DNA of 64,000 bases from an uncultured Prevotella sp. GTDB lineage: Bacteria > Bacteroidota > Bacteroidia > Bacteroidales > Bacteroidaceae. Below, piece by piece: positions 23,052 to 54,162 of the stretch. The notes under the pieces are model-generated. The model was not told where the DNA came from, did no database searches, and was given only the letters and a program-made list of their open reading frames with translations. The stretch covers positions 1-64,000 of the forward strand of contig ONHQ01000018.1 in the NCBI GenBank assembly GCA_900317685.1, given 5' to 3'. A program made the position numbers and the translations under genes. Every line of letters starts with the position of its first letter. Position 1 is the first letter of the stretch.

Positions 23052-23095
23052 TAAAAAAAATCCCAAGCATGGGACTCACGTCTCAAAGCTTGGGA
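23052..23095 (-). terminator. Terminator of the DUF349 gene
   Basis: TCCCAAGC (23061-23068) pairs with GCTTGGGA (23088-23095), and a run of A on the plus strand gives the U-tract. The stretch 22851-23050 shows no gene. Confidence 0.8.
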
Positions 23096-23116
23096 CCTTC
23101 TATAATGATTGGCAGG

Positions 23117-25105: not shown

Positions 25106-25209
25106 TACACCGTTTTAAGTTTATGATTCGGTTTGTCACTTGTCCCTCCCTCGTCTCTAAAAATAGACGACAAGGGAGCAGACAACACATACTATTTTCT
25201 ATTATTATG

Positions 25210-25217
25210 CAAACTTA
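25210..25217 (-). promoter_or_regulatory. -7 promoter element of the DUF349 gene
   Basis: TAAGTTTG on the minus strand, about 105 bases before the start codon, in an AT-rich intergenic stretch. Confidence 0.45.
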
Positions 25218-25292
25218 AACAAAAAAACTGTAATTCCAACAAAAACTATTGTTTTTTTACGAAAAAACTTAAGTTTGCCGCCTTTTAGTGTA

Positions 25293-26228
25293 CTAAAGAA
25301 GCCGTTTCCATTTCAAATACCACAGGCTGATAGCAGTCACGACAACAGATATGGCGATGGTGATGACAAAGCCATAGTGCGAAGTCTCAAGCCCGTTGAC
25401 AACGTTCATACCATAGAAACTGGCGATGAGCGTAGGGAACATCAGCACGATATTGATCGACGAGAGGTTACGCATTGTGGTATTCATGTTGTTGTTGATG
25501 ACGCTCTGATAGGTGTCCATCGTCGACTCCAGAATGTTGGAGTAGATGTTGGTAGTCTCGCGTGCCTGCGTCATCTCGATGCTCACATCTTCGATAAGGT
25601 CGGCATCCAATTCGTCGACTTGTAGCTTGAATTTCAGCTTCTGCAACAGGTTCTCATTGCCACGGATGGAAGTGATGAAGAAGGTCAGAGAGTCCTGCAA
25701 CCTTGACAGTCCGATCAGACTCTCGTTGTTGATCTCGCTGTCGAGGTTGTGCTTAGCCTTCTCAATGAGGGTATTGATTTGCTTCAACCGTTTCAGATAC
25801 CACACGGCACTGGAGAGGAAGAGGCGGAAGATCATGTCGACATAGTCGGTGAATCCTTGACCGCGTTTCTGCTGATAGCTGACGAAGTCGATCATCATAT
25901 TCGTCTCGTAGAAGCAGACGGTGATGGTCACATCGCGTTTATGGATGATGCCGAGCGGCACAGTAGTATAAGGTGTGCGGCTCTTCACCTCCTTGACGTA
26001 TGGGATACGCAAGATGATGAGCATCCAACCATCGTCGTACTCATAGCGGGCACGCTCATCAGTATCGCTGATGTCGCTAAGAAAATAATCGGGGATATTG
26101 AATTTGTCCACCAGTTCGCGCTGGTCATCGTCGGTGGGGCACGTTACTTGAATCCAGCAGTTGGGCTGCCACTCCTGGAGGGCGCTCAGCTTTTTCTCAA
26201 TGTTCCAATATGTTCTCATTGTAGCCAA
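25293..26228 (-). CDS. corA: Magnesium transporter CorA family protein
   Basis: A 311-residue CorA-type channel for Mg2+ or other divalent ions. A long N-terminal cytoplasmic part with alpha/beta and helical segments is followed by two C-terminal membrane helices. The selectivity-loop motif YGMNV lies at the end of the first helix, then a second helix (about 281-302) and a basic tail. The length is normal. It is a single gene with a possible TAATTTTG element at 26343-26350 upstream. Confidence 0.93.
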   Translation of the reverse strand: MATMRTYWNIEKKLSALQEWQPNCWIQVTCPTDDDQRELVDKFNIPDYFLSDISDTDERARYEYDDGWMLIILRIPYVKEVKSRTPYTTVPLGIIHKRDVTITVCFYETNMMIDFVSYQQKRGQGFTDYVDMIFRLFLSSAVWYLKRLKQINTLIEKAKHNLDSEINNESLIGLSRLQDSLTFFITSIRGNENLLQKLKFKLQVDELDADLIEDVSIEMTQARETTNIYSNILESTMDTYQSVINNNMNTTMRNLSSINIVLMFPTLIASFYGMNVVNGLETSHYGFVITIAISVVVTAISLWYLKWKRLL

Positions 26229-26442
26229 TCTCCATGATAAGATGTGTGGGGACTGACTCTCTGAGTCGAATCCTCACGTTATTACTTGAAGTTTTCCGCG
26301 TGATAATCGTCCATAAATTGATGAATATTGATTAACTGACTGCAAAATTAGGAAAAATATGCGAGCGAGCCAACGATTTAATATTCTTTTTGATGACAAA
26401 GATGATAAAAGCAAGACAAGAAGACATGCTCCTTTTTATATG

Positions 26443-26757
26443 ACATAAAGACAAAAATGACATATTCTTTTTTGTTTAGACAAAAAGACATATTTCTCTT
26501 TGTTTAGACATAAAGACAAAAAAGGCATAAAGACAAAAAGAAAATATGTTCTTTATGTCTTTTGTTTAAAAAAAGGCATAAAGACAAAAAGAAAATATGT
26601 TCTTTATGTCTTTTGTTTAGACAAAAAGACATATTTCTCTTTGTTTAGACATAAAGACAAAAAAGACATAAAGACAAAAAGAAAATATGTTCTTTATGTC
26701 TTTATGTCTTAAACAAGGAAACATGTCTTTATGTTTCAAAAGAAACCTGTCTTTATC
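26443..26757. repeat. Family B repeat array without a gene (core GACATAAAGACA and its reverse complement)
   Basis: Many copies of GACATAAAGACA and of TCTTTATGTC occur here. Blocks such as GGCATAAAGACAAAAAG...TTCTTTATGTCTTTTG are repeated at about 26524-26568 and 26575-26619, and each is an inverted pair that can fold as a hairpin. Read along the pepD transcript (minus), the array begins within a few bases of the pepD stop codon and its first cores are in the forward orientation. The rest of the 530-base gap to corA holds only the corA promoter. The same family flanks the nuclease-like gene at 53341-53754. Confidence 0.85.
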
Positions 26758-26759
26758 GT

Positions 26760-28214
26760 CTACTTCTCGGGGACTTGCTCGAGCACTGCTGTCAGCAGTT
26801 TCCAGAAAGGCTCTGCGGTAGCAATTTCGAAGCGCTCGTTGACAGTGTGCGGGCTGCGGAGCGTAGGACCGAGAGAGACGACCTCCATGTTGGGGTACTT
26901 CTCCAAGATCACCGAGCACTCCAGTCCGGCGTGATCCACGACGACGGTAGCGTCCTTACCGTTCTGCTCTTTGTAGACTTTGCACAGCAACTTCAGCAGA
27001 GAACTGTCGGGATTAGGATCCCAACCACCGTAAGAACCGGAGAACTCTACCTTCATGCCTGCCATGGAGAACACGCTCTCCAACTGTGTAGCAACATACA
27101 TCTTCATATCCTCGCGGCTGGAGCGAGCCAGGATCTTGATAGCGGCCTTACCCTCTCCGATGGAGATGATGGCGAGGTTTGACGAGGTCTCCACCACGTC
27201 GGGCTTGACAGGGATGAAGCGCACCACACCGTTGTGGCAACCATAGATGGCGTCCACGAGATTGTCCTGAATCTCTTCCGGCACCAATGTAGCAGGTTTG
27301 TCAACATCCTCGCAGAAGAACTGCACGTTGCTCTCGATGGTCTTGAACTCATCCTCGATAGCCAGACGCTGCTTCTCTACCATCTGTTTCAGTGCCTCTA
27401 CATTTGCCTTTGGCAATGCGAGTACCACTTCGGCATGAGACGGAATGGCATTGCGCATGTTGCCGCCTTCCCAGCAGACCAGACGGGCACCCAGCTCGAC
27501 GATGGCCTCACGCACGAGACGCACCATCTCCTTATTGGCGTTGGCACGGCCTGCGTTGATCTCCAGACCAGAGTGTCCGCCACGCAAGCCCTTCAGCGTC
27601 ACCTTGACGGCAGCCTCCTGGTCGTTCTCTACTTCCTGATATTGCATTGTAGCGGTGATGTCAATGCCACCAGCACTTCCGATGCAGAAGTTTCCCCATG
27701 TCTCAGAGTCGAGGTTGAGATAGTAGTCAGCGTTGAGCTCACCCTTGGGCAACTCATTAGCTCCGAACATACCTGTCTCCTCGTCGCGTGTAATCAAAGC
27801 CTCCAAAGGTCCGTGCTTAAGGTCGTTGCTCTCGAACACACCCATGATGGCAGCCACGCCCATACCGTCGTCAGAACCGAGCGTAGTGCCCTTAGCGTGC
27901 ACCCATCCGTCCTTGACGTAGGTCTCAATAGGATCAGTCTCGAAATTATGATTGCTGTCGGGAGTCTTCTGTGGCACCATATCCATGTGAGCCTGCAACA
28001 GCGTGGTCTTACGGTTCTCATAGCCCGGGGTGGCCGGTTTGCGCATGACGATATTGCCTCCAGCGTCCTTGAAAGCCTCCACGCCAATCTTTGCTGCGAA
28101 GTCGAGAAGGAACTGCTGTACTTTCTCTAAGTGTCCCGACGGACGCGGCACCTGTGTCAGTGCGTCGAAGTTGCGCCAGATGGCTGCTGGCTGCAGATTG
28201 CTGATTTCACTCAT
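26760..28214 (-). CDS. pepD: Aminoacyl-histidine dipeptidase (beta-Ala-His/Xaa-His dipeptidase)
   Basis: A 484-residue cytoplasmic M20-family metallopeptidase that cleaves Xaa-His dipeptides. Metal ligands can be recognised in LLQAHMDMVPQ (His), TLGSDDGMGVAA (Asp), the catalytic DEETGMFGA (Glu pair) and the late DHAGLECSVI (His). The dimerisation or lid domain lies in the middle. The length is normal for PepD. It follows the flippase-like gene by 35 bases on the same strand, and a repeat array begins right at its stop codon. Confidence 0.94.
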   Translation of the reverse strand: MSEISNLQPAAIWRNFDALTQVPRPSGHLEKVQQFLLDFAAKIGVEAFKDAGGNIVMRKPATPGYENRKTTLLQAHMDMVPQKTPDSNHNFETDPIETYVKDGWVHAKGTTLGSDDGMGVAAIMGVFESNDLKHGPLEALITRDEETGMFGANELPKGELNADYYLNLDSETWGNFCIGSAGGIDITATMQYQEVENDQEAAVKVTLKGLRGGHSGLEINAGRANANKEMVRLVREAIVELGARLVCWEGGNMRNAIPSHAEVVLALPKANVEALKQMVEKQRLAIEDEFKTIESNVQFFCEDVDKPATLVPEEIQDNLVDAIYGCHNGVVRFIPVKPDVVETSSNLAIISIGEGKAAIKILARSSREDMKMYVATQLESVFSMAGMKVEFSGSYGGWDPNPDSSLLKLLCKVYKEQNGKDATVVVDHAGLECSVILEKYPNMEVVSLGPTLRSPHTVNERFEIATAEPFWKLLTAVLEQVPEK

Positions 28215-28249
28215 AATATTACGTTTAATGGTTACAATAAATATTTTAC

Positions 28250-29269
28250 TTATTCACGGATGATAGTCTCTTTCTTGTTGCTCACTCTTTTTTTCGTGAA
28301 ACTTAAGGCCATCCATCCATAGATGCCGATGACCACGACGAGCAAGGTCTGTATGCTGTGGACGATAAGCACAAAGTTCAGGGCGGCCGTAGACGCTACA
28401 CCATAGAGGATGAGCATGGTCTTCACTGCGAAATGCCAGGGGCCCGCACCGTTGGGCGTGGGCACGATGACGGCAATGCTGCCTACGATGAACGTGACCA
28501 TCGCACAGGCAAAGCCTAAATGGCGGGTCGCATCGAAGCAGAAAAAGGTGAGATAGTAGTGAAGGAAGTAACAAGCCCAAATGGCAACGGAGTAGAAAAT
28601 GAACAAGGGTACGTTCTTGACATAGCGCACCGACACCACTCCCTGCCACAGTCCATGGAAGAGATCCTTCACCTTATTATATATAGACATCTTTCTGAGC
28701 AGCACCCAGAGCAGGATGATCACGGCTATGCCACATATCATCGTCACCAGCCAGCCCGTAGACGAGAAACTTGCCAAAAACTCATCGACACGCGTGCCCG
28801 TGCGCCGGAAGAAAGACTGGAAGACACGGAACTGGGAGAGCAGCGTGGCTACGATCATCACCAGCACCAGCACGGAGTCGATGGCACGCTCGGTGACCAC
28901 TGTGCCCAAAGCCTTGGGAAACGAAACGCCGTCCCACCGTCGCAGGATGCCGCAGCGTGCGAACTCGCCCACACGGGGGATCAGCAGGCTCACGGCATAG
29001 GATACAAAGATGCTGTTGACCGACACCGAGACGCGTGGCTTCTCACCAACCGGCTCCAAGGTCTGCTGCCAACGCCAGCCACGAAAGGCCTGCGCCAGTA
29101 TGCCGAAAGGAAAGGAGAGGAGCATCCATGTCCAGTCCATCCCGTGGAGCAGCACCTGCTTCATGCCTTGGAAATCAAAGCCACGATACATCCAATAGAG
29201 GATGGCACCGCCCAGTATCAGGCTCAATGCCACCTTCACTATGTTGTTGATGGTGTTTCCGTTCTTCAT
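28250..29269 (-). CDS. Flippase-like/lysylphosphatidylglycerol synthase transmembrane domain protein
   Basis: A 339-residue multi-pass membrane protein of the UPF0104 family with about eight helices. It has a conserved RGWRWQQTLEPVGEK segment near the N-terminus and FVSYAVSLLIPRVGEFARCGILRR, and the typical late motif PTPNGAGPWHFAVKTML. This is the membrane half of MprF-type proteins, without the lysyl-transferase domain. The lipid or glycolipid moved is unknown. A -7 element (TACTTTTG, 29285-29278) lies 9 bases before the start. Confidence 0.88.
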   Translation of the reverse strand: MKNGNTINNIVKVALSLILGGAILYWMYRGFDFQGMKQVLLHGMDWTWMLLSFPFGILAQAFRGWRWQQTLEPVGEKPRVSVSVNSIFVSYAVSLLIPRVGEFARCGILRRWDGVSFPKALGTVVTERAIDSVLVLVMIVATLLSQFRVFQSFFRRTGTRVDEFLASFSSTGWLVTMICGIAVIILLWVLLRKMSIYNKVKDLFHGLWQGVVSVRYVKNVPLFIFYSVAIWACYFLHYYLTFFCFDATRHLGFACAMVTFIVGSIAVIVPTPNGAGPWHFAVKTMLILYGVASTAALNFVLIVHSIQTLLVVVIGIYGWMALSFTKKRVSNKKETIIRE

Positions 29270-29277
29270 ATAGCATA

Positions 29278-29285
29278 CAAAAGTA
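29278..29285 (-). promoter_or_regulatory. -7 promoter element of the flippase-like gene
   Basis: TACTTTTG on the minus strand, very close to the start codon, which implies a very short leader. Confidence 0.5.
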
Positions 29286-29363
29286 ATGCAATTCAGTGGA
29301 ATAACGAAACTTTTTTAGAAAAATAATCATTTTATAATGTACGCCTTTTCCCTTATAGAATTC

Positions 29364-29398
29364 ATTGATACACATCAATCTGCTTGACACGTATCAAT
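29364..29398. other. Inverted repeat ATTGATAC...GTATCAAT upstream of the small-protein gene
   Basis: Perfect 8-base arms with a 19-base spacer, about 35 bases before the -33 region of the 31-residue gene. It is a possible activator or repressor site. Confidence 0.4.
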
Positions 29399-29432
29399 TA
29401 AAATCACATATTTCGCGAATAAAACCACTATT

Positions 29433-29465
29433 GTTTGCGCACACAGAGAAAAACTCCTACCTTTG
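29433..29465 (+). promoter_or_regulatory. Strong promoter of the small-protein gene
   Basis: A -33 element TTTGCG and a -7 element TACCTTTG (29458-29465), separated by about 18-20 bases, form one of the best matches to the Bacteroidetes consensus in the window. The leader of about 120 bases contains GTGGTC (29489-29494) and GACCAC (29535-29540), which can pair, and two copies of GGATAACAA (29499-29507, 29548-29556). Confidence 0.65.
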
Positions 29466-29591
29466 CAAACGTAAAACAGAGACCCCAAGTGGTCAAGAGG
29501 ATAACAAGTCCACAAGAAGATCTCCACAACACGAGACCACGGACAAAGGATAACAAAAGTAGAATTTAAAGTAAAGAAAGGTAAAAAGATT

Positions 29592-29687
29592 ATGAGTATG
29601 ATGACATTTATCACATTGGTAGCTGTTGCTTTCGTAGGTGCTTCTGCACTGGCTCTGACAATGGATCACATGGTTGAGGGCAAGTAA
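29592..29687 (+). CDS. 31-residue single-helix membrane peptide
   Basis: An ATG opens a 31-codon frame: hydrophobic FITLVAVAFVGASALALT (one membrane helix) then a short charged tail DHMVEGK. It is flanked by a strong promoter and an intrinsic terminator, so it is very likely a real, well-expressed monocistronic gene. The product is too short for common gene callers. The ending ALALxxxHxxEGK loosely recalls the CydX subunit of cytochrome bd oxidase, but the N-terminal CydX motif is missing, so that is only a thought. Function unknown. Confidence 0.7.
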   Translation: MSMMTFITLVAVAFVGASALALTMDHMVEGK

Positions 29688-29730
29688 GCAGCCTTTTAGA
29701 TTTTAAAAAAAATAGAGAGAATATATAGAA

Positions 29731-29768
29731 GACCGGGAACGGAGCAATCTGTTTCCGGTCTTTTTTTG
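29731..29768 (+). terminator. Terminator of the small-protein gene
   Basis: GACCGGGAAC pairs with GTTTCCGGTC (one G-U pair); a run of seven T follows. Confidence 0.88.
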
Positions 29769-29821
29769 TGCTCTGACGGCAATTCTTCATCTCGTTTCTT
29801 GCCTATCCCCAATGTTTTTCG

Positions 29822-29829
29822 TACATTTG
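29822..29829 (+). promoter_or_regulatory. -7 promoter element of rsmA
   Basis: TACATTTG, 27 bases before the rsmA start codon. Confidence 0.5.
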
Positions 29830-29856
29830 TAACCAAAGAAAAAACATACAAGCAAC

Positions 29857-30663
29857 ATGAAGCAAGTAAAGCCAAAGAAAAACCTCGGCCAGCACTTTCT
29901 GACTGATCTCGACGTGGCACGACGCATCGCCGACACAGTAGATGCCTGTCCGGCACTGCCCATCCTGGAGATCGGACCGGGCATGGGAGTCCTCACACAG
30001 TATTTAGTGAAGAAGAACCGGGAGGTGAAAGCCGTGGAAATCGACTCCGAGAGCGTGGCTTACCTCAACGAGCGCTATCCCGAACTCCGCGACCAGATCA
30101 TCGGTGAGGACTTCCTGCGCATGGATCTGAACAAGATCTTCAATGGGCGGCAGTTTGTGCTCACGGGCAACTATCCCTACGACATCTCGTCACAGATCTT
30201 CTTCAAGATGCTCGACTACAAGGATCTTATCCCTTGCTGCACGGGTATGATCCAGCGCGAGGTGGCTCAGCGCATCGCATCCGCGCCGGGCAACAAGGCT
30301 TACGGCATCCTCAGCGTGATGATACAAGCATGGTACGACGTGGAGTATCTCTTCACCGTTGACGAAGGAGTCTTCAATCCGCCACCAAAGGTGAAGAGTG
30401 CCGTGATACGCATGACACGCAACAACGTGACGGATCTCGGCTGCGACGAGGTGCTCTTCAAGCGTGTGGTGAAGACCGTCTTCGGCCAGCGCCGCAAGAT
30501 GTTGCGTGTCTCGTTGCGCCAGCTCTTCACGCCGCAGACGATGCCCTCACCCGACTTCTTCGCTCAGGACATCATGACGAAACGTCCCGAACAGCTCTCT
30601 GTTCAGCAATTCGTGGAACTCACCTCCATGGTTGCGGACAAAGTAAACAGCAGCGCAGTGTAA
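29857..30663 (+). CDS. rsmA: 16S rRNA (adenine(1518)-N6/adenine(1519)-N6)-dimethyltransferase
   Basis: A 268-residue KsgA/RsmA enzyme that dimethylates two adenines near the 3' end of 16S rRNA. The family start MKQVKPKKNLGQHFL, SAM motif LEIGPGMGVLT and catalytic motif GNYPYDISS are present, followed by the C-terminal VFGQRRKMLR. It is complete. A 28-bp tandem repeat array begins 13 bases after its stop codon. Confidence 0.96.
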   Translation: MKQVKPKKNLGQHFLTDLDVARRIADTVDACPALPILEIGPGMGVLTQYLVKKNREVKAVEIDSESVAYLNERYPELRDQIIGEDFLRMDLNKIFNGRQFVLTGNYPYDISSQIFFKMLDYKDLIPCCTGMIQREVAQRIASAPGNKAYGILSVMIQAWYDVEYLFTVDEGVFNPPPKVKSAVIRMTRNNVTDLGCDEVLFKRVVKTVFGQRRKMLRVSLRQLFTPQTMPSPDFFAQDIMTKRPEQLSVQQFVELTSMVADKVNSSAV

Positions 30664-30676
30664 AAGCCAAAGTCAG

Positions 30677-31016
30677 GACATAGTAACATACAAATCATTA
30701 ATAAGACATAGTAACATATTGAACATAAATAAGACATAGTAACATACAAATCATTAATAAGACATAGTAACATATTGAACATAAATAAGACATAGTAACA
30801 TATTGAACAGAAATAAGACATAGAAACATATTGAACATAAATAAGACATAGAAACATATTGAACATAAATAAGACATAGTAACATATTGAACAGAAATAA
30901 GACATAGAAACATATTGAACAGAAATAAGACATAGTAACATATTGAACATAAATAAGACATAGTAACATATTGAACATAAATAAGACATAGTAACATAGT
31001 AACATACTAACAGAGG
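30677..31016 (+). repeat. Family A tandem array, 28-bp units, forward half
   Basis: About 11-12 tandem copies of a 28-bp unit beginning GACATAGTAACATATTGAAC; two alternate copies carry a variant end (CAAATCATTAATAA). Because 28 is not a multiple of 3, the array stays open in all three frames of the minus strand and produces spurious ORFs rich in Cys, Tyr and Leu. It starts 13 bases after the rsmA stop codon. The opposite-facing half follows at 31042-31220. Confidence 0.92.
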
Positions 31017-31041
31017 AAACACACTGAATAGCATTATCTGT

Positions 31042-31220
31042 TTAGTCTGTTACTATGTCATTTAATCCATCTGTTTAATCTGTTACTATGTCATTTAATC
31101 CATCTGTTTAATCTGTTACTATGTCATTTAATCCATCTGTTTAAGTCATTTAATCCATCTGTTTAATCTGTTACTATGTCATTTAATCCATCTGTTTAAT
31201 CTGTTACTATGTCTTTATTC
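31042..31220 (-). repeat. Family A tandem array, 33-bp units, reverse half
   Basis: About five copies of a 33-bp unit containing TGTTACTATGTC, the reverse complement of the family A core, linked by ATTTAATCCATCTGTTTAAT. One copy is shortened by an internal deletion. Together with the forward half, it forms a large imperfect inverted repeat between rsmA and frr. Confidence 0.88.
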
Positions 31221-31261
31221 CTCTGTTATCATGTCGCAAAAGAAAAAAGTTAGGGAAATAG

Positions 31262-31292
31262 TTGCATCGTCCAGAAAATCTTTTTAAATTTG
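31262..31292 (+). promoter_or_regulatory. Promoter of frr
   Basis: TTGC (from 31262) and TAAATTTG (31285-31292) are spaced by 19 bases. The start codon follows 27 bases later. The promoter lies just past the repeat array, so frr need not be transcribed from rsmA. Confidence 0.6.
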
Positions 31293-31319
31293 TGACTTAG
31301 AAAACTAAGCACTAAAAAT

Positions 31320-31880
31320 ATGTTAGACGTAAAGCAAACCCTCAATGGCGCCGAGGAGAAAATGAAGAAGGCGTCGAAGTATCTTCAAGAGGAGCTCGCA
31401 CGCATCCGTGCCGGCCGTGCCAACGCAGCCATTCTCGATGGCGTGCGCGTAAGTTCTTATGGTCAGATGATGCCGCTCAACCAGGTGGCTTCCATCATTA
31501 TTCCTGACGCACGCACCATCACCATCCGTCCCTGGGACCGCAAGGCCATCAAGGACATCGAGAAAGGCATCATGGACAGCGATGTCGGCATCACACCGGA
31601 AAACAACGGCGAGATGGTCATCCTGCGCATTCCCCAGCCCACAGAGGACCGCCGTAGGGAACTCGTCAAACAGTGCAACAAAATTGGCGAAGGCGTGAAA
31701 GTGCAGGTACGTACCGCGCGCGCTGAGACCAAGGAAAAACTGAAGAAAGCTATCAAGGACGGACTCTCTGAGGATCAGGAAAAGGACGCTGAGGCCGACT
31801 TGCAGAAGATGCACGACAAATACATCAAGGAGATCGACGCCACCTTGGCTGCAAAGCAGAAAGAGGTGATGACCGTTTAA
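31320..31880 (+). CDS. frr: Ribosome recycling factor
   Basis: A 186-residue protein of normal length that splits post-termination ribosomes with EF-G. Family sequences include [42 protein letters not shown] and [20 protein letters not shown]. rsgA follows 10 bases downstream, so the two are co-transcribed. Confidence 0.96.
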
Positions 31881-31890
31881 TCCATTGCGC

Positions 31891-32826
31891 ATGAGAGGAC
31901 TTGTCGTAAGAAACACTGGATTTTGGTACACCGTGAAGACCGATGACGGTCAGCTCGTTGACAGCAAAGTCAAGGGAAACTTCCGTCTGAAAGGTATCCG
32001 CAGTACAAACCCGGTCGCCGTCGGTGACTGGGTGCATATAGATATCAACCGCGAGGGAACAGCGTTTATTACTGAGATAGAGGACCGGAAAAACTATATC
32101 ATCCGTAAATCTCAGAACCTGTCAAAGCAGAGCCATATCATTGCGGCTAATCTCGACCAGGCGATGCTCGTCATCACGGTGGCGCACCCTCAGACCTCCA
32201 CGACGTTTATCGACCGCTTCCTGGCCTCGGCTGAGGCCTACAGCGTGCCTGTGGTACTGGTGTTCAACAAGACCGATCTGCTTACCGACGAAGAGCGTCA
32301 CTATCAGGATATGATGGTGACGCTCTACGACAACATCGGCTACCCCTGCCATCAGGTGTCGGCACTCACCGGTGACGGCATCGATGACCTGCGCACTATG
32401 CTCAACGACAAGGTGACACTGCTCAGCGGCAATTCCGGCGTCGGCAAGTCCACACTTCTCAACCTGCTGATTCCCGGTACGGAAGCCCGTGTTGCCGACA
32501 TCAGCGAAGCCCACGACACGGGCATGCACACCACTACGTTCTCCGAGATGGTACCATTGCCCGACAACAATGGCTATGTCGTCGACACTCCGGGCATCAA
32601 AGGTTTCGGTACGTTCAACATGGAACCGGAAGAGATCACCAGCTATTTCCCCGAGATCTTCAAGTTCTCGCAGGACTGCCGCTTTGCCAACTGCACCCAT
32701 ACCCATGAGCCGGGCTGTGCCGTGCTGGAGGCTGTCCGCAACCACTACATCGCCGAGTCGCGCTACGAGAGCTATCTCGGCATGCTCAAGGATAAGGACG
32801 AGAGCAAATACCGAGAGGCTTTTTAG
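31891..32826 (+). CDS. rsgA: Ribosome small-subunit-dependent GTPase A
   Basis: A 311-residue circularly permuted GTPase that helps mature the 30S subunit. An N-terminal OB fold is followed by G4 ([10 protein letters not shown]), then G1 ([15 protein letters not shown]) and G3 ([10 protein letters not shown]), the permuted order typical of RsgA. The C-terminal zinc knuckle has Cys/His ligands in [14 protein letters not shown]. The ATG at 31891 fits the family start [13 protein letters not shown]; an upstream TTG is less likely. It is the second gene of the frr-rsgA pair. Confidence 0.95.
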
Positions 32827-32830
32827 CAGC

Positions 32831-32852
32831 GTGTCCACTGCGTCGTCAGTGG
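32831..32852 (+). other. Hairpin after rsgA
   Basis: GTCCACTG pairs with CAGTGGAC around a 6-base loop, a few bases after the rsgA stop codon. There is no immediate T-run, so terminator strength is uncertain. Confidence 0.55.
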
Positions 32853-33823
32853 ACGTCGCCTGTTGCTCTTTCCTTTAAGGTTCCTTCGCTTTCTTTTTTT
32901 CGTAGGCGGCGATGCGTTATCTTCTCTGATTCGGTTACAGAAGTTAGCAGAAAAGAAAATCGTCCATGACAAAAATTTCTAACGCGTAAAATTGCGCATG
33001 GGCGCATAAAATCATGCTACCAATAGCTTCAAATGACGACTATCTGAACTGCTGTGGTCGGAATTGGAGGCGCTGATTATTTTACGCACCGCCAAGGTGC
33101 GATTTTGTGTCAAGACTATTTCCCTTTTCTTCTTGGTGATGTCGTTGATGACAAGCAGTGTTCTTATGGCATCAAAACGGTGTTTTTACGGGGTCGAGAC
33201 AACGTTCTTGTGAGGTAGGGAGTGCTGTTCCCAATATTGTAATCCTATAGAAAAAGATCGTTTGCTACGTAGGGAATGATCTTTCTCTACGTAGTGAACA
33301 ATTGTCTGTCAGGCGGCAAAATCAATTTCCACGCATTGACCAGATCGCAGTGTTGTGTACTGATTTTGGTTGACAGTTTTGTTTGTTATTCCTAACTTAG
33401 TTTACACTTCTTTCTTCTTATTCCTAGACAGGTTGCCAATAGAGGGCATCAACTGCTTTTAGAACTTGACGGTACTGCTTTCTGACTGATAGTTCAGAGA
33501 CTCGTATGGTAGGTATGTTGCTGACCTGTATCCCACTGCCCCCGCCTGTTTTCAAGGTTTCCCTTGCTGTGATTTAAGCTTGAGGAACGAAGGCTGTCTC
33601 TTCTCCAGACATAGAGGTTTGTCCGGCGCGTCTTTCCGGGAATCGAGAAATATCCATTGCGCCGAAGATATTTGGTTAGGTCTTCGTGGTGTCCGGCCAC
33701 GGACTTCTGCACCTGAGCCTTTTTCCCATAGTGATGATCGCTTTCTGCCAGTGATATTCCATAAAAACCTACAAAAAGTTTAACTTTATCCCGCTTTGCT
33801 TTGTAGATAAAAGGAAAAAGCAC
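32853..33823. other. Gene-free stretch of about 1 kb
   Basis: No recognisable gene was found. A 109-codon minus-strand frame at 33494-33823 has no family signature and reads like non-coding or decayed DNA. Around 33210-33305 there are related short units with the palindrome CTACGTAG (near 33264 and 33288) and GGTAGGGAGTG. The rest shows no clear repeat. Confidence 0.5.
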
Positions 33824-33831
33824 TACCTTTG
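33824..33831 (+). promoter_or_regulatory. -7 promoter element of the SprT-like gene
   Basis: TACCTTTG, 28 bases before the start codon. Confidence 0.55.
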
Positions 33832-33859
33832 CTTGAGTTTAAAGTAAAGGATCGTTTTC

Positions 33860-34522
33860 ATGCAAATCACTCTTCCATGGCTCCGTGCCAACTTTCAGAC
33901 GTTCAACCGCCGATATTTCGACGGGGGGCTGCCCGAACCGCGCTATCACATCGGACGGTCGCGCACTCGGTTGGGCTCTCTCTCGTTCAAGCGGAAACGC
34001 ACGTGGCGAAAAGTCGTCAACTACGACTACTCGCTGGGCATGAGCAACTACTACGATCAAAGCGAGCATCAGTTCCAAAGCGTGTTGCTCCATGAGATGA
34101 TCCACTATTCCATCGCTTACACAGGTATCCGCGACACCTCGCCACACGGCGTAGTGTTCCGAGGCATCATGGACCGACTCAACCGTGACGGCTGGGACAT
34201 ACACGTAACGACCTCTACACGAGACCTCGGCAATGCAGCGACGGCCAATGGCGCTTCCACTGTGCGCAACAGACAACAGCACCTCGTGCTTGCCATCGAA
34301 ATGCGCGACGGCCACCATTTTCTCTCTGTCGTGAACCCACACTTCGCCCGTGAACTCAACAACCGGTTAAACTCTATCCCCGAGGTAAGTCATCACAGTT
34401 GGTTTGTCACCGACGATTCATGGTTCAACAACATGCCGCGCGTGCGCAGTCTGCGGGGACGGCGTGTCGACACCGCTACCTATATAGAGAAGACGCACGC
34501 CATGACTCCCTTCACCCTTTAA
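33860..34522 (+). CDS. SprT-like zinc metallopeptidase domain protein
   Basis: A 220-residue protein with a SprT-like domain: FNRRYFDGGLPEPRYHIGRSRTRLG near the start and the zinc-binding motif LLHEMIHYSI (HExxH, about residues 77-81). It lacks the C-terminal zinc ribbon of some SprT proteins; instead there is a ~100-residue extension rich in Arg and His. Bacteroidetes homologs are annotated as SprT-like; the substrate is unknown. An AraC-family gene follows 27 bases later. Confidence 0.82.
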   Translation: MQITLPWLRANFQTFNRRYFDGGLPEPRYHIGRSRTRLGSLSFKRKRTWRKVVNYDYSLGMSNYYDQSEHQFQSVLLHEMIHYSIAYTGIRDTSPHGVVFRGIMDRLNRDGWDIHVTTSTRDLGNAATANGASTVRNRQQHLVLAIEMRDGHHFLSVVNPHFARELNNRLNSIPEVSHHSWFVTDDSWFNNMPRVRSLRGRRVDTATYIEKTHAMTPFTL

Positions 34523-34549
34523 TCACCACCTTATTATATATAGCAACCT

Positions 34550-35458
34550 ATGACCACACCACAGCAAGCACCCACGACCAACAGCATCACTGCCACAGAC
34601 AACATCCAGCCTGTGACAGGGACAGAGCCGGAGTTTATCCTCTATGACGACTTCACCGATACTTCGCACCAAGTCGACTTCTTCATCCCCAACAGGTTCA
34701 TCGTGGCCTATTGCCGTCAAGGGTCTTTGTCCATCACTGTCAACCACAAGCAGCGGACGACTATGAACAGAGGCGACTTGCTCATAGCTTTTCCCCGCAC
34801 CACACTGGAGGACTTCTCCTTCTCCAGCGACCTGCAGCTGTTGGTGCTAAGCCTTTCGCCTACGGTCATCAACGACAGTCTCCTGGCCGACAAAGACCTG
34901 TGGCCTAACATAGAATTTATAAGTTTGCACCCTATGATCCACCTCACAGAAGAAGAGGTAGAGGTGGGCCAACATTATTACCATCTTTATAAGTCCTACT
35001 CGAAACGCAAACCTACCAAGTTTCGGAGCAATATCTTGTATACCCTGCACAGAAGCATGATCTATGAGCTCGCCGATATGGTGAACAACCGCACGGGATC
35101 GGTGCCTCAAAACGAACCCTACAGTCAGACCGACAACACTTTTAAGCACTTCCTGCTACTGCTGGCTCAAAGTGGAGGCAAGATCCGAAATGTCAGCTAC
35201 TTCGCCCGCGAGCTGTGCATCACCACGAAATATCTCTCGCATATCGTTAAGGAGAAGACCGGGCACTCAGCCAAGCAACTCATCGACGAGACGGTGGCCA
35301 ATGAGATCCGCCGCCAGCTGTGCTATACATCCAAAACGGTAAAGGAGATCGCCAACGACCTGGGATTCCCCAGTCTGAGCTTCTTCGGCACCTACACACG
35401 CAAGCATCTCAACGCCTCACCCGCCAATATTCGCAAGAATTACAGAACAGGCAAATAA
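34550..35458 (+). CDS. AraC-family transcriptional regulator
   Basis: A 302-residue regulator. The N-terminal cupin-like sensory half begins after a low-complexity Thr/Gln stretch. The C-terminal double helix-turn-helix (about 200-300) shows YFARELCITTKYLSHIVKEKTG and VKEIANDLGFPSLSFFGTYTRKHLNASP. The ligand and targets are unknown; this group is common in Bacteroidetes. The short spacer from the SprT-like gene contains the ACCTTATTATATATA element (34528-34542). Confidence 0.88.
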   Translation: MTTPQQAPTTNSITATDNIQPVTGTEPEFILYDDFTDTSHQVDFFIPNRFIVAYCRQGSLSITVNHKQRTTMNRGDLLIAFPRTTLEDFSFSSDLQLLVLSLSPTVINDSLLADKDLWPNIEFISLHPMIHLTEEEVEVGQHYYHLYKSYSKRKPTKFRSNILYTLHRSMIYELADMVNNRTGSVPQNEPYSQTDNTFKHFLLLLAQSGGKIRNVSYFARELCITTKYLSHIVKEKTGHSAKQLIDETVANEIRRQLCYTSKTVKEIANDLGFPSLSFFGTYTRKHLNASPANIRKNYRTGK

Positions 35459-38425: not shown

Positions 38426-38430
38426 AGACA

Positions 38431-38756
38431 GACATAGTAACATATTGAGCAGATAAAGACATAGTAACATATAAAACATAAGACATAGTAACATATTGAA
38501 CATAAGACATAGTAACATATTGAACAGATAAAGACATAGTAACATATTGAACATAAGACATAGTAACATATAAGACATAGTAACATATTGAACATAATAT
38601 AGTAACAGAGTGAACAGATATAAGACTTACTGACTAATGATTTTCGTTACTATGTCTTATGTTCCATATGTTACTATGTCTTATTTTTAATATGTTGTCT
38701 TATGTATAATATGTTACTATGTCTTTTTTTAATATGTTACTATGTCTAATAAACAG
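38431..38756. repeat. Family A array, gene locus, hemolysin III side
   Basis: About seven forward cores GACATAGTAACAT(A) from 38431 to about 38606, then four or five reverse cores TGTTACTATGTC between about 38645 and 38756. Spacers are of type TTGAACAGATAAA. A decayed core (ATACTATGTG) overlaps the end of the GxxExxY gene. Confidence 0.9.
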
Positions 38757-38770
38757 TCTGCACATGAATA

Positions 38771-39163
38771 CTATGTGTTGTGAACAGTTTTTTTGTAGGT
38801 GCGGTACTTATGTTTGAATTGCAATTGATCCGAGCCGAAGTTGATGAGGAATCCATCATCGATGCCTGTGGCGTTGAGATAGTTCACTAATTGTATTTCG
38901 TTGGCGATGGTAAGGCTGGTAGTAGCCTTTAACTCGAGGATGAGTCGGTTGTCAACGATCATGTCTGCTCTGTAGCTTCCAACTACGATGCCATCGTAAC
39001 GGACCTCAAATGGCACTTCTGTTTTAACAACGTGATTGTGCTTTCTAATCTCAATGAGCATCGCATTCTTGTAGACGGCCTCTAAGAACCCCGGTCCCAA
39101 CTGACGTCGGACTGCTTTCGCACACTCAATCATTAGTTTTATTAGATCATTGATATCCTCCAT
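38771..39163 (-). CDS. GxxExxY protein, PD-(D/E)XK nuclease superfamily
   Basis: A 130-residue protein with the family motif GFLEAVY (residues 25-31) and a nuclease-like signature: Asp67 in SYRADMIVDN, then Glu77-x-Lys79 in LILELKA. This fits the PD-(D/E)XK_3 family; catalysis is not proven. Both sides carry family A arrays. On the menB side, five reverse cores (39193-39296) run up to about 15 bases before the start codon, and its stop TAG lies in a core-like ACATAGTA. This gene and its arrays separate menB from menC. A paralog with a different array lies at 53341-53754. Confidence 0.85.
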   Translation of the reverse strand: MEDINDLIKLMIECAKAVRRQLGPGFLEAVYKNAMLIEIRKHNHVVKTEVPFEVRYDGIVVGSYRADMIVDNRLILELKATTSLTIANEIQLVNYLNATGIDDGFLINFGSDQLQFKHKYRTYKKTVHNT

Positions 39164-39178
39164 TTATAGTCTTGTTTT

Positions 39179-39298
39179 ATGTTATTATGTTACTATGTCT
39201 TATGTTCAATACGTTACTATGTCTTTTGTTCAATATGTTACTATGTCTTATGTTCAATACGTTACCATGTCTTATGTTCAATATGTTACTATGTCTTA
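39179..39298 (-). repeat. Family A tandem array, menB side, 24-bp units
   Basis: About five copies of a 24-bp unit, GTTACTATGTCTTATGTTCA plus ATAC or ATAT, with GTTACCATGTC in one copy. In the menB direction they read forward, and the menB stop TAA is the first part of the unit (TAAGACATAGTAACA). Confidence 0.9.
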
Positions 39299-40123
39299 AG
39301 GGAACTGGGGGTATTTGTCGAAGTCGGGCTTGCGCTTCTCCAAGAAGGCGCGGCCGCCTTCCTGCGCCTCGTCGAGGGTGTAGTAGAGCATTGTGGCGTC
39401 ACCGGCGAGCTCCTGGATACCTGCCTGTCCGTCGAGCTCAGCGTTGAAGCCAGCCTTCATCATGCGGATGGCGAGCGGAGAGCGCTCCATGATCGTCTCG
39501 CACCAGGCCACCGTCTCATCCTCGAGTTGGTCAAATGGTACCACCTTGTTGACGAGTCCCATCTGTTCCGCTTCCTTTGCGGAGTACTGACGGCAGAGAT
39601 ACCAGATCTCGCGCGCCTTCTTTTGTCCCACGATGCGAGCCAGATAGCTGGCACCCAGTCCGGCATCGAAGCTGCCTACTTTGGGTCCCGTCTGTCCGAA
39701 GATAGCGTTTTCCGAAGCTATTGTCAGGTCGCAGACCACGTGCAGCACATGTCCGCCACCGATCGCGTAGCCGTTGACCATGGCGATGACCGGCTTTGGC
39801 AGTCGTCGGATCTGCATTTGCACGTCGAGCACGTTGAGGCGTGGCACACCATCACTACCGACATATCCACCGCGTCCCTTGACGTGCATGTCGCCACCCG
39901 AGCAGAACGCCTTGTCGCCGGCGCCTGTGAGGATCACCACACGTATGTCGAGATGATCACGGCAATAGGTGAAGGCTTGACTCATCTCCCACACCGTGAG
40001 CGGTGTGAAGGCGTTGCGGTAGCGTGGACGGTTGATGGTGATCTTAGCGATGTGATTGTATTCTTCAAAGAGTATCTCCTTGAAGTCGAAACCCGGAATG
40101 GTTTTCCAATTTCTCTTTTCCAT
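39296..40123 (-). CDS. menB: 1,4-dihydroxy-2-naphthoyl-CoA synthase
   Basis: A 275-residue crotonase-fold enzyme that closes the second ring of the menaquinone head group. Family sequences: [76 protein letters not shown] and a final FLEKRKPDF. It follows menD by one base, as in a tight operon. The expected next gene, menC, is instead beyond the GxxExxY locus and the hemolysin III gene. Confidence 0.95.
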
Positions 40124-46397: not shown

Positions 46398-47861
46398 ATG
46401 AAAGACATTGTAGGTAGAATCAAGTCGTTAGCTTCTAAAGGTGAAGACGTCCATATAGAGTACAAATCTTGCATTGACAAAGTGAGCGGCTCTGTTTATG
46501 AGACAATATGCTCATTCCTTAATCATGGTGGAGGAACCATATTGCTCGGTGTTAATGATGATGGCCAAATAATCGGGGTCAATCCTTCACAGGCGGAGAA
46601 TATGAAGAAGACCATAATCAATGCTACGAATAACCCGGAACTGTTCATACCAAGTGCAAATATATATCCTGAGATAATCGATGTAGAGGGTAAAAAAGTC
46701 ATTGTACTCGACGTGCAGAGTTCTGATGCGGTAAGCCAATATAAGAAGCATTTCTACGACCGTAACGGCGATGCTGATGTTGATGTGACAAACCATGGCG
46801 GTCTCTTGCAGTCCATATTCGAGCGAAAATCAAACCATATATTTGAGAAGAGAATTGTAGAGGGACTTACGATTAGCGATCTTGACCATGAAACCTTTGA
46901 TATGTGTCGTCAATTCGTTAAGGGTGCAATGCATGAACATCCATGGATAACTATGGGTGACGAAGAAATATTGCGCTCTTGTCAGTTGGTCCGAAGGGAT
47001 CCATTTACAGGAGAAGAGCATCTGTGCTACGCTGCACTTTTGCTTTTCGGGACGGATGATGCCGTGTTCAACTATTGCCCAAGATACAGAATAGAACTTC
47101 TATACCACCAATGCTGTTATAATGATTTTCTAATGAGACAGACGGCATCAAGCTACGACAATCGTGAGTCTATACGTTGCAATCTCATAAAAGGCTATGG
47201 TATTATGCAGAGGTTTGTACTTCGGTATTTGCCAGACAAGTATTTTGTTCCGAGTAACAGTATTCAGCGTCAAGATCTGCGATGGCTTTTGTTTAGGGAA
47301 ATCTGCGCAAACATGATGGTACATGCCGACTACAGCCTTGGATATGCAAGTTTTCTCGACATTTACACCGACAAAGTGATTACAAGAAACAGAACAAGAC
47401 TGGTGTCCGCTGCCAAGGAGAATGTTATCGGTATAGACCAATTGGAGAACTACACTAAGAATCCTCTAATAGTAAACGTATTCAGAAATCTTGGATGGGT
47501 AGAGGATTTGGGTTCTGGTTCAAAGAAGATAAAAACATATGCCCCTTTGTACTATAAAGAACCAGACATAAAGATACATGATGGGGAAAATTTCATTTTC
47601 AGTATAACTTATTCTCTTTCAAATTCGTTGAAGGAGGATACCTGTACTAATAGTAGCAAGGAACTGCAATTCAAGACTCCTCTGCATGCACTCGTGTATG
47701 CTCTCTTGAAGCAAATGCCTAAAATAAAGACGGCGGAGATAACCAATTATGTAAAGACAAGCCACAGATCCGTGCTCCGTATCATATCAGACTTGAAAGA
47801 AGAAGGATGGATAGAACGCCAAGGACAGAAAAAAGATGTGACTTGGAAAATATTAAAGTAG
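46398..47861 (+). CDS. AlbA_2/Schlafen-type ATP-binding and helix-turn-helix protein
   Basis: A 487-residue protein. The N-terminal AlbA_2 (divergent AAA-4) domain reads EYKSCIDKVSGSVYETICSFLNHGGGTILLGVNDDGQIIGV. The middle has an HATPase-like regulator region (FREICANMMVHADYS). The C-terminal winged helix is near IKTAEITNYVKTSHRSVLRIISDLKEEGWIERQ. Such proteins are usually transcription regulators or phage-defence-associated. Base composition and codon use are more AT-rich than in neighbours, and a ~90-bp direct repeat flanks the gene. Together these suggest it was inserted between the GH89 gene and the acetyltransferase-like gene. The role is unknown. Confidence 0.82.
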   Translation: MKDIVGRIKSLASKGEDVHIEYKSCIDKVSGSVYETICSFLNHGGGTILLGVNDDGQIIGVNPSQAENMKKTIINATNNPELFIPSANIYPEIIDVEGKKVIVLDVQSSDAVSQYKKHFYDRNGDADVDVTNHGGLLQSIFERKSNHIFEKRIVEGLTISDLDHETFDMCRQFVKGAMHEHPWITMGDEEILRSCQLVRRDPFTGEEHLCYAALLLFGTDDAVFNYCPRYRIELLYHQCCYNDFLMRQTASSYDNRESIRCNLIKGYGIMQRFVLRYLPDKYFVPSNSIQRQDLRWLLFREICANMMVHADYSLGYASFLDIYTDKVITRNRTRLVSAAKENVIGIDQLENYTKNPLIVNVFRNLGWVEDLGSGSKKIKTYAPLYYKEPDIKIHDGENFIFSITYSLSNSLKEDTCTNSSKELQFKTPLHALVYALLKQMPKIKTAEITNYVKTSHRSVLRIISDLKEEGWIERQGQKKDVTWKILK

Positions 47862-53028: not shown

Positions 53029-53035
53029 GTACTTT

Positions 53036-53287
53036 GACATAAAGACATGTTCTTGTTTTTAAGACATAAAGACATAAAAGACATATTCTTTTAAGACGTG
53101 TTCTTGTTTTTAAGACATAAAGACATAAAAGACATATTCTGGTTTTTAAGACATAAAAACATAAAAGACATGTTCTTTGTTTTTAGACATAAAGACATAA
53201 AAGACATGTTCTGTTTTTTAAGACATAAAGACATAAAAACATAAAAGATATGTTCTTTGTTTTTAGACATAAAGACATAAAGGACAT
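53036..53287 (+). repeat. Family B array, gpsA side, ~36-bp forward units
   Basis: About seven forward units starting GACATAAAGACATAAAAGAC, each ending in a run like TTCTTGTTTTTAA. The array starts 7 bases after the gpsA stop codon. It is the forward part of the B locus; the reverse part lies at 53915-54098. Confidence 0.9.
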
Positions 53288-53302
53288 ATTTTTATGAAGA
53301 AG

Positions 53303-53310
53303 TATTTTTG
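53303..53310 (+). promoter_or_regulatory. -7 promoter element of the B-locus GxxExxY gene
   Basis: TATTTTTG, with AGGAGA at about 53322 and the ATG at 53341. Confidence 0.45.
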
Positions 53311-53340
53311 AGTTTAGGAAAAGGAGAGCAATATAATATA

Positions 53341-53754
53341 ATGAGTGAGATGGATGAAGAAGAGCTAAAGAAGAAAGCGTTAGAGGAGAAGATAACTAAG
53401 ATTATCCAATGCGCCTATAATGTTCGGGGCGTATTGCCAAAAGGGTTCTTGGAAAAGGTATATAAGAATGCCTTGTATCTTGAACTCCGAGAGCACAATC
53501 TCAACGTGATACCCGAAGCACCCATTGAAGTCTATTATAAGGGTGTTGTGGTGGGGGAGTACAGAGCGGATATGCTTGTGGACAACAGCATTATCATTGA
53601 GCTGAAGGCCATACAGAGTCTGACGAGGCAGGATGAAGTGCAACTGGTCAATTATCTGACAGCATTCCATCTCGACACAGGATTGCTCATCAACTTCGGA
53701 GGCGATAATCTGGAGATAAAGCGTAAATACAGGGAATACAAGAAGACAAGGTAA
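53341..53754 (+). CDS. GxxExxY protein, PD-(D/E)XK nuclease superfamily
   Basis: A 137-residue paralog of the 38771-39163 protein. It has GFLEKVY at 35-41, the nuclease-like signature with Asp77 in EYRADMLVDN and Glu87-x-Lys89 in IIIELKA, and a charged N-terminal extension (DEEELKKKALEEK). The ATG at 53341 was chosen over the upstream TTG because of the GGAGA site just before it. It is bracketed by family B arrays (forward on the gpsA side, reverse on the pgi side), and it breaks the lysS-gpsA-pgi row. Its paralog is likewise bracketed, but by family A arrays. Biochemical activity is not shown. Confidence 0.85.
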   Translation: MSEMDEEELKKKALEEKITKIIQCAYNVRGVLPKGFLEKVYKNALYLELREHNLNVIPEAPIEVYYKGVVVGEYRADMLVDNSIIIELKAIQSLTRQDEVQLVNYLTAFHLDTGLLINFGGDNLEIKRKYREYKKTR

Positions 53755-53914
53755 GTAAAACAAGTATAAATTAGTATTATTCATTTAATAAGGTAAGATG
53801 ATGAGAAAGGATTAGGCAAGAATACATCACAGTTAGGAGACTGTTCGTATTGAAGATGAAAGCAGAAACTGAGACAGAGACAAAGACGGAGAGTAGAATA
53901 TTTCTTTATGAATT

Positions 53915-54098
53915 ATATGTTCTTTATGTCTTTCTGTCTAAAGAAGACTGAAGGAAAATATGTTCTTTATGTCTTTTTGTCTAAGAAAGGATAGAAGAAT
54001 AATATGTTTTTTATGTCTTTCTGTCTAAGAAAGAATTAAAGAACAATATGTTTTTTATGTCTTTCTGTCTGAAAAAGAAAAGCATGTCTTTCTGTCTT
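53915..54098 (-). repeat. Family B array, pgi side, ~43-bp reverse units
   Basis: About four units of ~43-44 bp starting ATATGTTCTTTATGTC (reverse core of family B; some TTTTTTATG), ending in a CTGTCTAAGAAAG-like spacer. They lead up to pgi. The stretch 53755-53914 has no gene or repeat that I can see. Confidence 0.9.
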
Positions 54099-54162
54099 CA
54101 ACAAAGTCGTCTGTCTGTCGTGATTCTGTCGTGATTCTGACTTTGAGTCTTGAAAGATCATC

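What the first reader, a model, noticed from the sequence alone, without database searches (positions are those of the whole stretch)
53029..54162. Second GxxExxY gene with its own repeat family B (locus B)
Seen: a 137-residue paralog (GFLEKVY; Asp77; Glu87-x-Lys89) is bracketed by ~36-bp forward units (53036-53287) and ~43-bp reverse units (53915-54098) of a different core, GACATAAAGACATA. Its arrangement repeats that of locus A with different repeats and a different paralog. Two independent cases within 15 kb make coincidence unlikely.
Basis: partly seen in the sequence, partly recalled or inferred. Interest (0 to 1): 0.93.

Follow-up and report, generated by a model that had tools for sequence, protein, structure and literature searches.

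The report
Nuclease gene inside its own palindrome
A small gene for a predicted DNA-cutting enzyme lies between mirror-image runs of a short DNA word, and relatives of this gene in other bacteria often lie between mirror-image runs of words that go with their branch of the family, so gene and repeats are likely a mobile element in which the enzyme would act on its own repeats.

Summary
Locus B is a 137-aa GxxExxY gene (TIGR04256/PF13366, predicted PD-(D/E)XK nuclease) between inverted arrays built on GACATAAAGACATA. The three GxxExxY genes found in this genome (88% complete) are all bracketed by inverted repeats. In relatives, 51 of 73 GxxExxY loci have an inverted repeat across the gene above the 99th percentile of mismatched flank pairs; 1 of 121 other genes does.

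In the A/B protein clade, GACR-N5-ACR stands upstream in sense orientation in 41 of 46 loci (antisense 0), against 1 of 63 loci of other Bacteroidales clades and 0 of 74 of a third clade, whose own word ACCRCRRAG recurs across phyla. Gene-less arrays of the same words are dispersed in the genomes. One genome holds two 91%-identical elements at different sites with common ends, plus shortened and gene-less copies.

Best reading: a RAYT/REPIN-like mobile system run by an unrelated nuclease. Movement is supported by comparison; the nuclease's action on its repeats is inferred. A four-helix-bundle family (23S rRNA IVS protein family) shows the same architecture.

The parts
53029..53290 (+). left array of locus B: forward units on GACATAAAGACATA (basic word GACATAAA, in units of about 36-51 nt)
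53341..53754 (+). GxxExxY gene of locus B, 137 aa, predicted PD-(D/E)XK nuclease; ortholog in G101, dN/dS 0.075
53910..54098 (-). right array of locus B: the same kind of unit, inverted (TATGTCTTTCTGTC), period 44
39173..39298 (-). locus A: array upstream of the gene (gene-sense GACATAGTAACATA)
38771..39163 (-). GxxExxY gene of locus A, 130 aa, 57-59% identical to B
38646..38747 (-). locus A: downstream units in the same sense as the gene
38430..38616 (+). locus A: outer downstream units in inverted sense, closing the palindrome
30677..31227 (.). gene-less A-type palindrome: 12 forward then 5 reversed GACA(T/G)A words, between two genes; also present, diverged, in G062
26442..26761 (.). gene-less B-type array, forward and reversed units; also present, diverged, in G062

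Best explanation
Locus B is likely a transposon-like unit: the gene of a predicted PD-(D/E)XK nuclease (GxxExxY family) lies between inverted arrays of an 8-nt word that goes with its protein clade, and the nuclease likely recognises these arrays in DNA and would thereby copy or move the whole unit and the gene-less palindromes of the same word, as a RAYT transposase is thought to do for its REPs. Shown: the architecture, its recurrence beside most GxxExxY genes examined in relatives, the link between protein clade and word, the polarity, the dispersed gene-less copies, purifying selection on the gene (one species pair), and in one genome two near-identical elements at different sites with common ends plus shortened and gene-less copies. 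Inferred: that GxxExxY itself binds and cuts its arrays (perhaps where they are single-stranded or extruded as a hairpin, since its nearest solved folds are of Cas4 and lambda-exonuclease type), that this cutting causes the movement, and that gene-less palindromes are its non-autonomous passengers.
Against: G012 (99% complete) has 52 copies of core B but no A/B-clade gene; its two GxxExxY genes are remote (best E 2e-13 to B). Within the genus sample, cores (two or more copies) occur in 5 of 8 genomes with an A/B-clade gene but also in 4 of 28 without, p 0.013. 22 of 73 loci, and 33 of 67 in the cross-phylum set, show no inverted repeat above score 32. 32 of 42 core-B clusters show one orientation only at up to 1 mismatch. 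No target-site duplication was seen (by eye). The four-helix-bundle family, not known as an enzyme (recalled), shows the same architecture, 17 of 27, so cutting may not be what the architecture needs. G062, which lacks A and B, keeps remnants at both sites, so it looks like loss and not like a clean empty site. Many A/B loci share old sites: 46 loci fall into 12 neighbour clusters, one of 19 loci.
Confidence: 0.58

Rival explanations
1. Homing: the palindromes are spread by something else, and GxxExxY is a homing-type endonuclease whose gene is copied into the middle of palindromes that carry its word, so the target is split and protected.
For: The gene sits inside palindromes that also exist empty in the same genomes with the same polarity; at locus A, G062 has a short palindrome with an A-type left arm where G000 has the gene (by eye).
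Against: It does not explain how gene-less palindromes multiply. In G047 gene-bearing, shortened and gene-less copies share a left end, as expected if the unit moves with its ends. At one intergenic gap the arms differ with the cargo.
Confidence: 0.17
2. RNA: the arms pair in the transcript and the gene sits in the loop, as with 23S rRNA IVS elements; the stem serves processing or stability, and the clade link is only common descent.
For: IVS elements have this layout and RNase III cuts their stem (PMC4990558, passages); a four-helix-bundle family has the same layout here.
Against: In 51 inverted-repeat pairs G.U mismatches (105) do not clearly exceed A.C mismatches (83), p 0.13; no Rfam family matches at gathering threshold in 26-55 kb; gene-less arrays are dispersed. 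The mismatch test is weak, because repeated units are not independent.
Confidence: 0.12
3. Another enzyme spreads the palindromes (Y1/RAYT transposase or another transposase) and GxxExxY genes are passengers caught in them.
For: Core B is abundant in G012 without an A/B-clade gene.
Against: No PF01797 match in G003, G012, G023 (56% complete) or G030, and none of the 12 Y1 loci of the other five genomes carries the exact A or B core. A passenger would not be expected to match the word by protein clade. Other transposase families were not searched.
Confidence: 0.08
4. The arrays are operator-like or terminator-like sites by which a non-mobile nuclease controls itself or neighbouring genes.
For: The window's arrays lie in intergenic gaps, one between convergent genes.
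Against: Two copies with common ends at different sites in G047; about 50 core-B copies each in G012 and G028.
Confidence: 0.05

Closest known systems
RAYT / REPIN systems (REP-associated tyrosine transposases)
   Same: Gene flanked by inverted copies of a dispersed extragenic repeat, repeat type goes with protein clade, inverted doublets without the gene spread through the genome (PMC2817692 passages; PMC3116915 abstract and outline)
   Different: The enzyme is a predicted PD-(D/E)XK nuclease and not a Y1 (PF01797) protein; units are tandem short words and not GT(A/G)G-headed hairpins; GxxExxY loci with such arms occur in records named Bacteroidota, Cyanobacteria and Planctomycetes, among others
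23S rRNA intervening sequences (IVS) with an S23p ORF
   Same: ORF between terminal inverted repeats; origin and movement unexplained (PMC4990558 passages); TIGR02436, which I recall as the family of that ORF, shows the same intergenic layout here
   Different: Locus B is intergenic, not in rRNA, and encodes a predicted nuclease
Heptanucleotide repeats (TAACTGA repeats of Beggiatoaceae, cyanobacteria and Bacteroidetes)
   Same: Short tandem words in intergenic DNA; the author suggests that a repeat-binding protein could be the mobile element (PMC4679880 passages)
   Different: No nuclease or paired inverted arms were linked to them in the passages seen; arms of the four-helix-bundle loci here have period 7, those of A/B loci period 8
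Homing endonucleases of the PD-(D/E)XK fold (I-Ssp6803I, recalled)
   Same: Small stand-alone PD-(D/E)XK nuclease gene, likely selfish
   Different: No intron or intein was seen here; flanked by its own repeats
Insertion sequences and MITEs
   Same: Inverted ends; gene-bearing, shortened and gene-less copies
   Different: The encoded protein has no DDE or HUH domain in Pfam; no target duplication seen; ends are word arrays of variable length

Membership tests
GxxExxY (TIGR04256 / PF13366) | profile match over the curated cut-off | tested here: met
   129.3 bits against 35; 119.4 against 22
PD-(D/E)XK nuclease superfamily | D ... E-x-K active-site pattern and core fold | tested here: met
   Asp74, Glu84, Lys86, Gln98 and Tyr102 of the 134-aa query are invariant in 48 sequences; predicted fold matches Cas4-, exonuclease- and restriction-type structures
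PD-(D/E)XK nuclease superfamily | nuclease activity | not testable with these tools
   no assay
RAYT | Y1 transposase domain PF01797 | tested here: not met
   the only Pfam family over its cut-off is PF13366
RAYT | gene flanked by inverted copies of the dispersed repeat | tested here: met
RAYT | repeats coevolve with the protein | tested here: met
RAYT | GT(A/G)G-headed REP hairpins | tested here: not met
   no such head on the B units, read by eye
IS element | target-site duplication | tested here: inconclusive
   none seen by eye at the two full G047 copies
23S rRNA IVS | inside a 23S rRNA gene, S23p ORF | tested here: not met
   between two protein genes, no Rfam match in 26-55 kb, PF13366 protein
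Homing endonuclease | cuts the empty site that its gene occupies | not testable with these tools
   no assay
Anti-phage defence nuclease | match to a PADLOC model | tested here: not met
   0 families at E 0.01 for A and B

The most novel reading that the evidence does not exclude
GxxExxY nucleases define a separate class of prokaryotic mobile element, spread over Bacteroidota, Cyanobacteria, Planctomycetes, Chloroflexota and perhaps archaea: each clade recognises its own 7- to 10-nt word, builds inverted word arrays as its ends and scatters gene-less palindromes; four-helix-bundle (IVS protein) genes are a second, non-homologous driver of the same architecture, and the puzzling 23S rRNA intervening sequences are simply such elements that landed in rRNA.
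Probability: 0.35. Interest if true: 0.95.

Novelty: new variant of a known kind. Interest (0 to 1): 0.86.

Why it matters
GxxExxY is a named family for which I found no function in print: full-text searches of the held open-licence library gave three papers that hold GxxExxY, PDDEXK_3 or PF13366, none of them about its function as far as titles, abstract starts and one passage show. The result gives the family a testable substrate, offers a driver for short-word palindromic repeats in several phyla, and ties them to the unsolved origin of 23S rRNA intervening sequences. The natural series of clades with different words is a ready-made set for finding how a small nuclease reads DNA sequence.

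Tried and rejected
RNA-hairpin reading: G.U against A.C mismatches 105 against 83, p 0.13, no clear strand bias. Cargo exchange inside one fixed palindrome: in one gap (ychF-lgt by my reading of the translated ends) GxxExxY genes (G006, G018, G032) and four-helix-bundle genes (G033, G012) occupy the same place, but the arms differ, and in G012 the palindrome lies beside and not around the gene. First, synteny-blind clade test overstated the link, because orthologous sites share flanks; replaced by the neighbour-controlled count. Genome-level link between core and A/B-clade gene: a first Fisher test over 60 genomes (p 0.001) counted 24 genomes outside the genus that the protein searches had not covered; on the 36 genus genomes it is p 0.013, and the latter is used. 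Shared arms between four-helix-bundle and GxxExxY loci of one genome: 1 of 53 pairs. Clean empty sites: G062 keeps part of arms or spacer at both loci, so it is read as loss; G011 has a short gap without the element. Y1/RAYT driver. Defence system: no PADLOC match. Sequence search of the PDB: no match. Literature on GxxExxY, on inverted repeats around four-helix-bundle genes and on nuclease-linked dispersed repeats: nothing on point in the listings. GACR-N5-ACR was chosen after seeing the arms; the strict form from the window's own cores is given beside it.

Rows dropped: of the matches listed, fragments and two weak or broken G047 matches were not taken for the counts. Of 95 profile hits, second copies of the same locus and hits under 70% of the profile were left out (82 loci, 34 genomes kept), and 9 more for short or N-rich flanks (73 loci, 32 genomes). 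Of 80 named loci, 13 lacked 600-nt flanks (67 kept) and 6 lacked 200-nt flanks (74 kept). The 30 four-helix-bundle loci are the best matches that handed out, of many more; 3 lacked flanks (27 kept). The 59 loci hold duplicates between two searches and are the best handed out by each (46 unique).

Full report

NOT ALONE IN THE GENOME. Locus A (38771-39163, -) is a paralog, 57-59% identical, inside a palindrome of GACATAGTAACATA units; in gene sense it reads + array, gene, + units, - units. The third GxxExxY gene (L003) lies between inverted 74- and 82-nt repeats that contain hairpins, with an outer 86-nt direct repeat. Two gene-less arrays of the A and B types lie at 30677-31227 and 26442-26761.

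GENERALITY. I took 73 GxxExxY loci with 600-nt flanks from 32 genomes of the genus and order and scored the best inverted repeat between the two flanks. 51 of 73 exceed 32, the 99th percentile of 389 mismatched flank pairs; 23 of 73 have a direct repeat at that level; 58 of 73 either. Mismatched pairs within a genome reach it in 2 of 186. Of 121 other genes, taken from the window and six long stretches, 1 does, and it is the gene next to a GxxExxY locus. In 33 of the 51 both arms start within 100 nt of the gene, in 46 at least one. A scan of named genomes with the canonical clade gave 80 loci (the best 80 of a capped list) in records titled Bacteroidota, Cyanobacteria, Planctomycetes, Anaerolineae, Dojkabacteria, an archaeal MAG and others. 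Of 67 usable ones 34 exceed 32; mismatched pairs here do so in 23 of 400, because the arms share one consensus across phyla, and above the 99th percentile of that set (42) stand 21 of 67.

CLADE PREDICTS WORD. Relatives of A and B were sought in 398 genomes of the genus; 238 (B) and 237 (A) have a match. 52 of the 59 best loci handed out have an inverted repeat above 32 (400-nt flanks). In the 46 unique ones, GACR-N5-ACR within 200 nt stands upstream in gene sense in 41, upstream antisense in 0, downstream antisense in 39, downstream sense in 8 (Markov-shuffled flanks: 4, 0, 6, 4); for 63 loci of other Bacteroidales clades the counts are 1, 0, 2, 3, for 6 canonical loci of these relatives all 0, and for 74 canonical loci of all phyla 0, 1, 0, 0. 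Of the five A/B loci without the motif, three have ACATAAGAA(A)CATA instead (by eye). The canonical clade has ACCRCRRAG in 33 of 74 upstream sense, 9 upstream antisense, 36 downstream antisense and 4 downstream sense, and 1.2-1.4 kb away in at most 1 of 62. On a 195-leaf tree the GAC label needs 5 changes (shuffled 31-42) and the ACC label 22 (shuffled 28-35); within the canonical clade alone ACC needs 21 (shuffled 19-30), which is no finer structure. The motif was relaxed after seeing the arms; the strict core shared by the window's two loci is found upstream in 8 and downstream in 12 of the 42 loci outside G000 and G101. The 46 loci fall into 12 groups by shared neighbour genes, 11 of them with the motif, so the link is not one site seen many times, though one group holds 19 loci. 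Over all clades, pairs from different genomes without a shared neighbour share five or more 11-mers in 9 of 14 cases at protein identity of 70% or more, 5 of 111 at 50-70% and 51 of 3020 below 50%; paralogs within one genome below 50% do so in 4 of 115. So the repeat follows the protein and not the genome.

DISPERSED GENE-LESS COPIES. Exact core A occurs in 7 of 60 genomes, core B in 8 of 60 (52 copies in G012, 51 in G028, single copies in three genomes), and a third core, AGAATTAGAGAATTNGAGAATT, in 7 of 60; reversed-order controls give 0 to 2 hits a genome. Copies of the third core bracket the GxxExxY gene in G023 and G032 and adjoin it in G018 and G006; other copies lie away from the GxxExxY genes listed, one of them about 1 kb off. 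By my reading, two or more copies of core A or B are found in 5 of 8 genus genomes with an A/B-clade gene (49% identity or more to A or B) and in 4 of 28 without, p 0.013. Of 41 core-B loci of G012 and G028, 40 hold no GxxExxY gene. At up to one mismatch 32 of their 42 clusters have one orientation only; the 10 with both read + then -, the polarity of the gene-bearing loci (11 of 12 at two mismatches). Against a strict pairing: G012 has the most copies and no A/B-clade gene.

MOVEMENT. In genome G047 two elements on different contigs are 91% identical over 481 bp and the likeness ends sharply on both sides. A search of that genome with one of them gave 12 hits at E 3e-04 or better: the two full copies; two shortened copies (query 11-180 and 14-162, 77% and 79%), one of them with an inverted arm at its far end; a decayed copy with left and right ends about 440 bp apart; a gene-less palindrome of about 160 nt with both arms; five left-end pieces; and one inner piece. 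The left ends start at query positions 8-17. No target duplication was seen by eye. Near the window, G101 has B at the same site with fewer left units, and A on another contig; G062 lacks both genes but keeps arm or spacer remnants, which I read as loss.

A SECOND FAMILY. As a control I used TIGR02436, the four-helix-bundle family that I recall as that of the S23p of 23S rRNA intervening sequences. It turned out to share the layout: 17 of 27 loci exceed 32. Its arms have period 7, those of the A/B clade period 8, those of the canonical clade 9, 10 and 12; the mixed set of 73 shows no single period. In one gap some species carry a GxxExxY gene and others a four-helix-bundle gene, with different arms. 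IVS elements are described as an ORF between terminal inverted repeats with unclear origin, possibly mobile (PMC4990558, passages).

MECHANISM. The anatomy fits an element whose protein knows its own ends: word, polarity and clade go together, gene-less copies share ends with gene-bearing ones, and whole units occur at new sites. RAYTs are described in the same terms, always flanked by two inverted REPs and coevolving with them (PMC2817692, passages; REPINs: PMC3116915, abstract and outline). GxxExxY is not a RAYT: it has no Y1 domain, and Y1 genes are undetected in G003, G012, G023 and G030 and away from the exact cores in the other five genomes searched. I infer that GxxExxY cuts its arrays, perhaps as single strands or hairpins, and that repair or replication then copies the unit. 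The step from association to action is untested, and the four-helix-bundle case warns that binding, and not cutting, may be the common need.

Noticed in passing
L093-L122 (TIGR02436 loci); e.g. L122, L103, L095, L109, L117: Four-helix-bundle (23S rRNA IVS protein family, recalled) genes lie between inverted arrays of 7- to 8-nt words in ordinary intergenic sites: 17 of 27 loci.
   Followed up: partly
one gap (ychF-lgt by my reading): L073, L078, L079 against L122, L111: The same intergenic gap holds a GxxExxY gene in three species and a four-helix-bundle gene in two others, with different arms.
   Followed up: partly
L003:1068-2226 (G000 C66): The third GxxExxY gene of this genome is bracketed by two long palindromic hairpins, an inverted 74-nt repeat and an outer 86-nt direct repeat.
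   Followed up: no
L028 (G016) and L029 (G010): GxxExxY genes inside long direct repeats (631 nt at 90%, 360 nt at 85%) without a strong inverted pair.
   Followed up: no
window 23055-35449 against G062 (L183): This 12-kb segment is inverted in a very close relative.
   Followed up: no
window 46398-47861: A Schlafen/AlbA_2 protein gene in a low-GC stretch (38% GC) flanked by a direct repeat, score 81.
   Followed up: no
G019:C16, G096:C23, G125:C29, G078:C56: B-like genes, or a fragment in G078, stand right beside gpsA in four more species, on either side of it.
   Followed up: no
window 39163-39310; L057, L359, L363, L365: In several species the gene stands just after the end of menB (my reading of the translated end), as in locus A: an old shared site with fast-changing arms.
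   Followed up: partly
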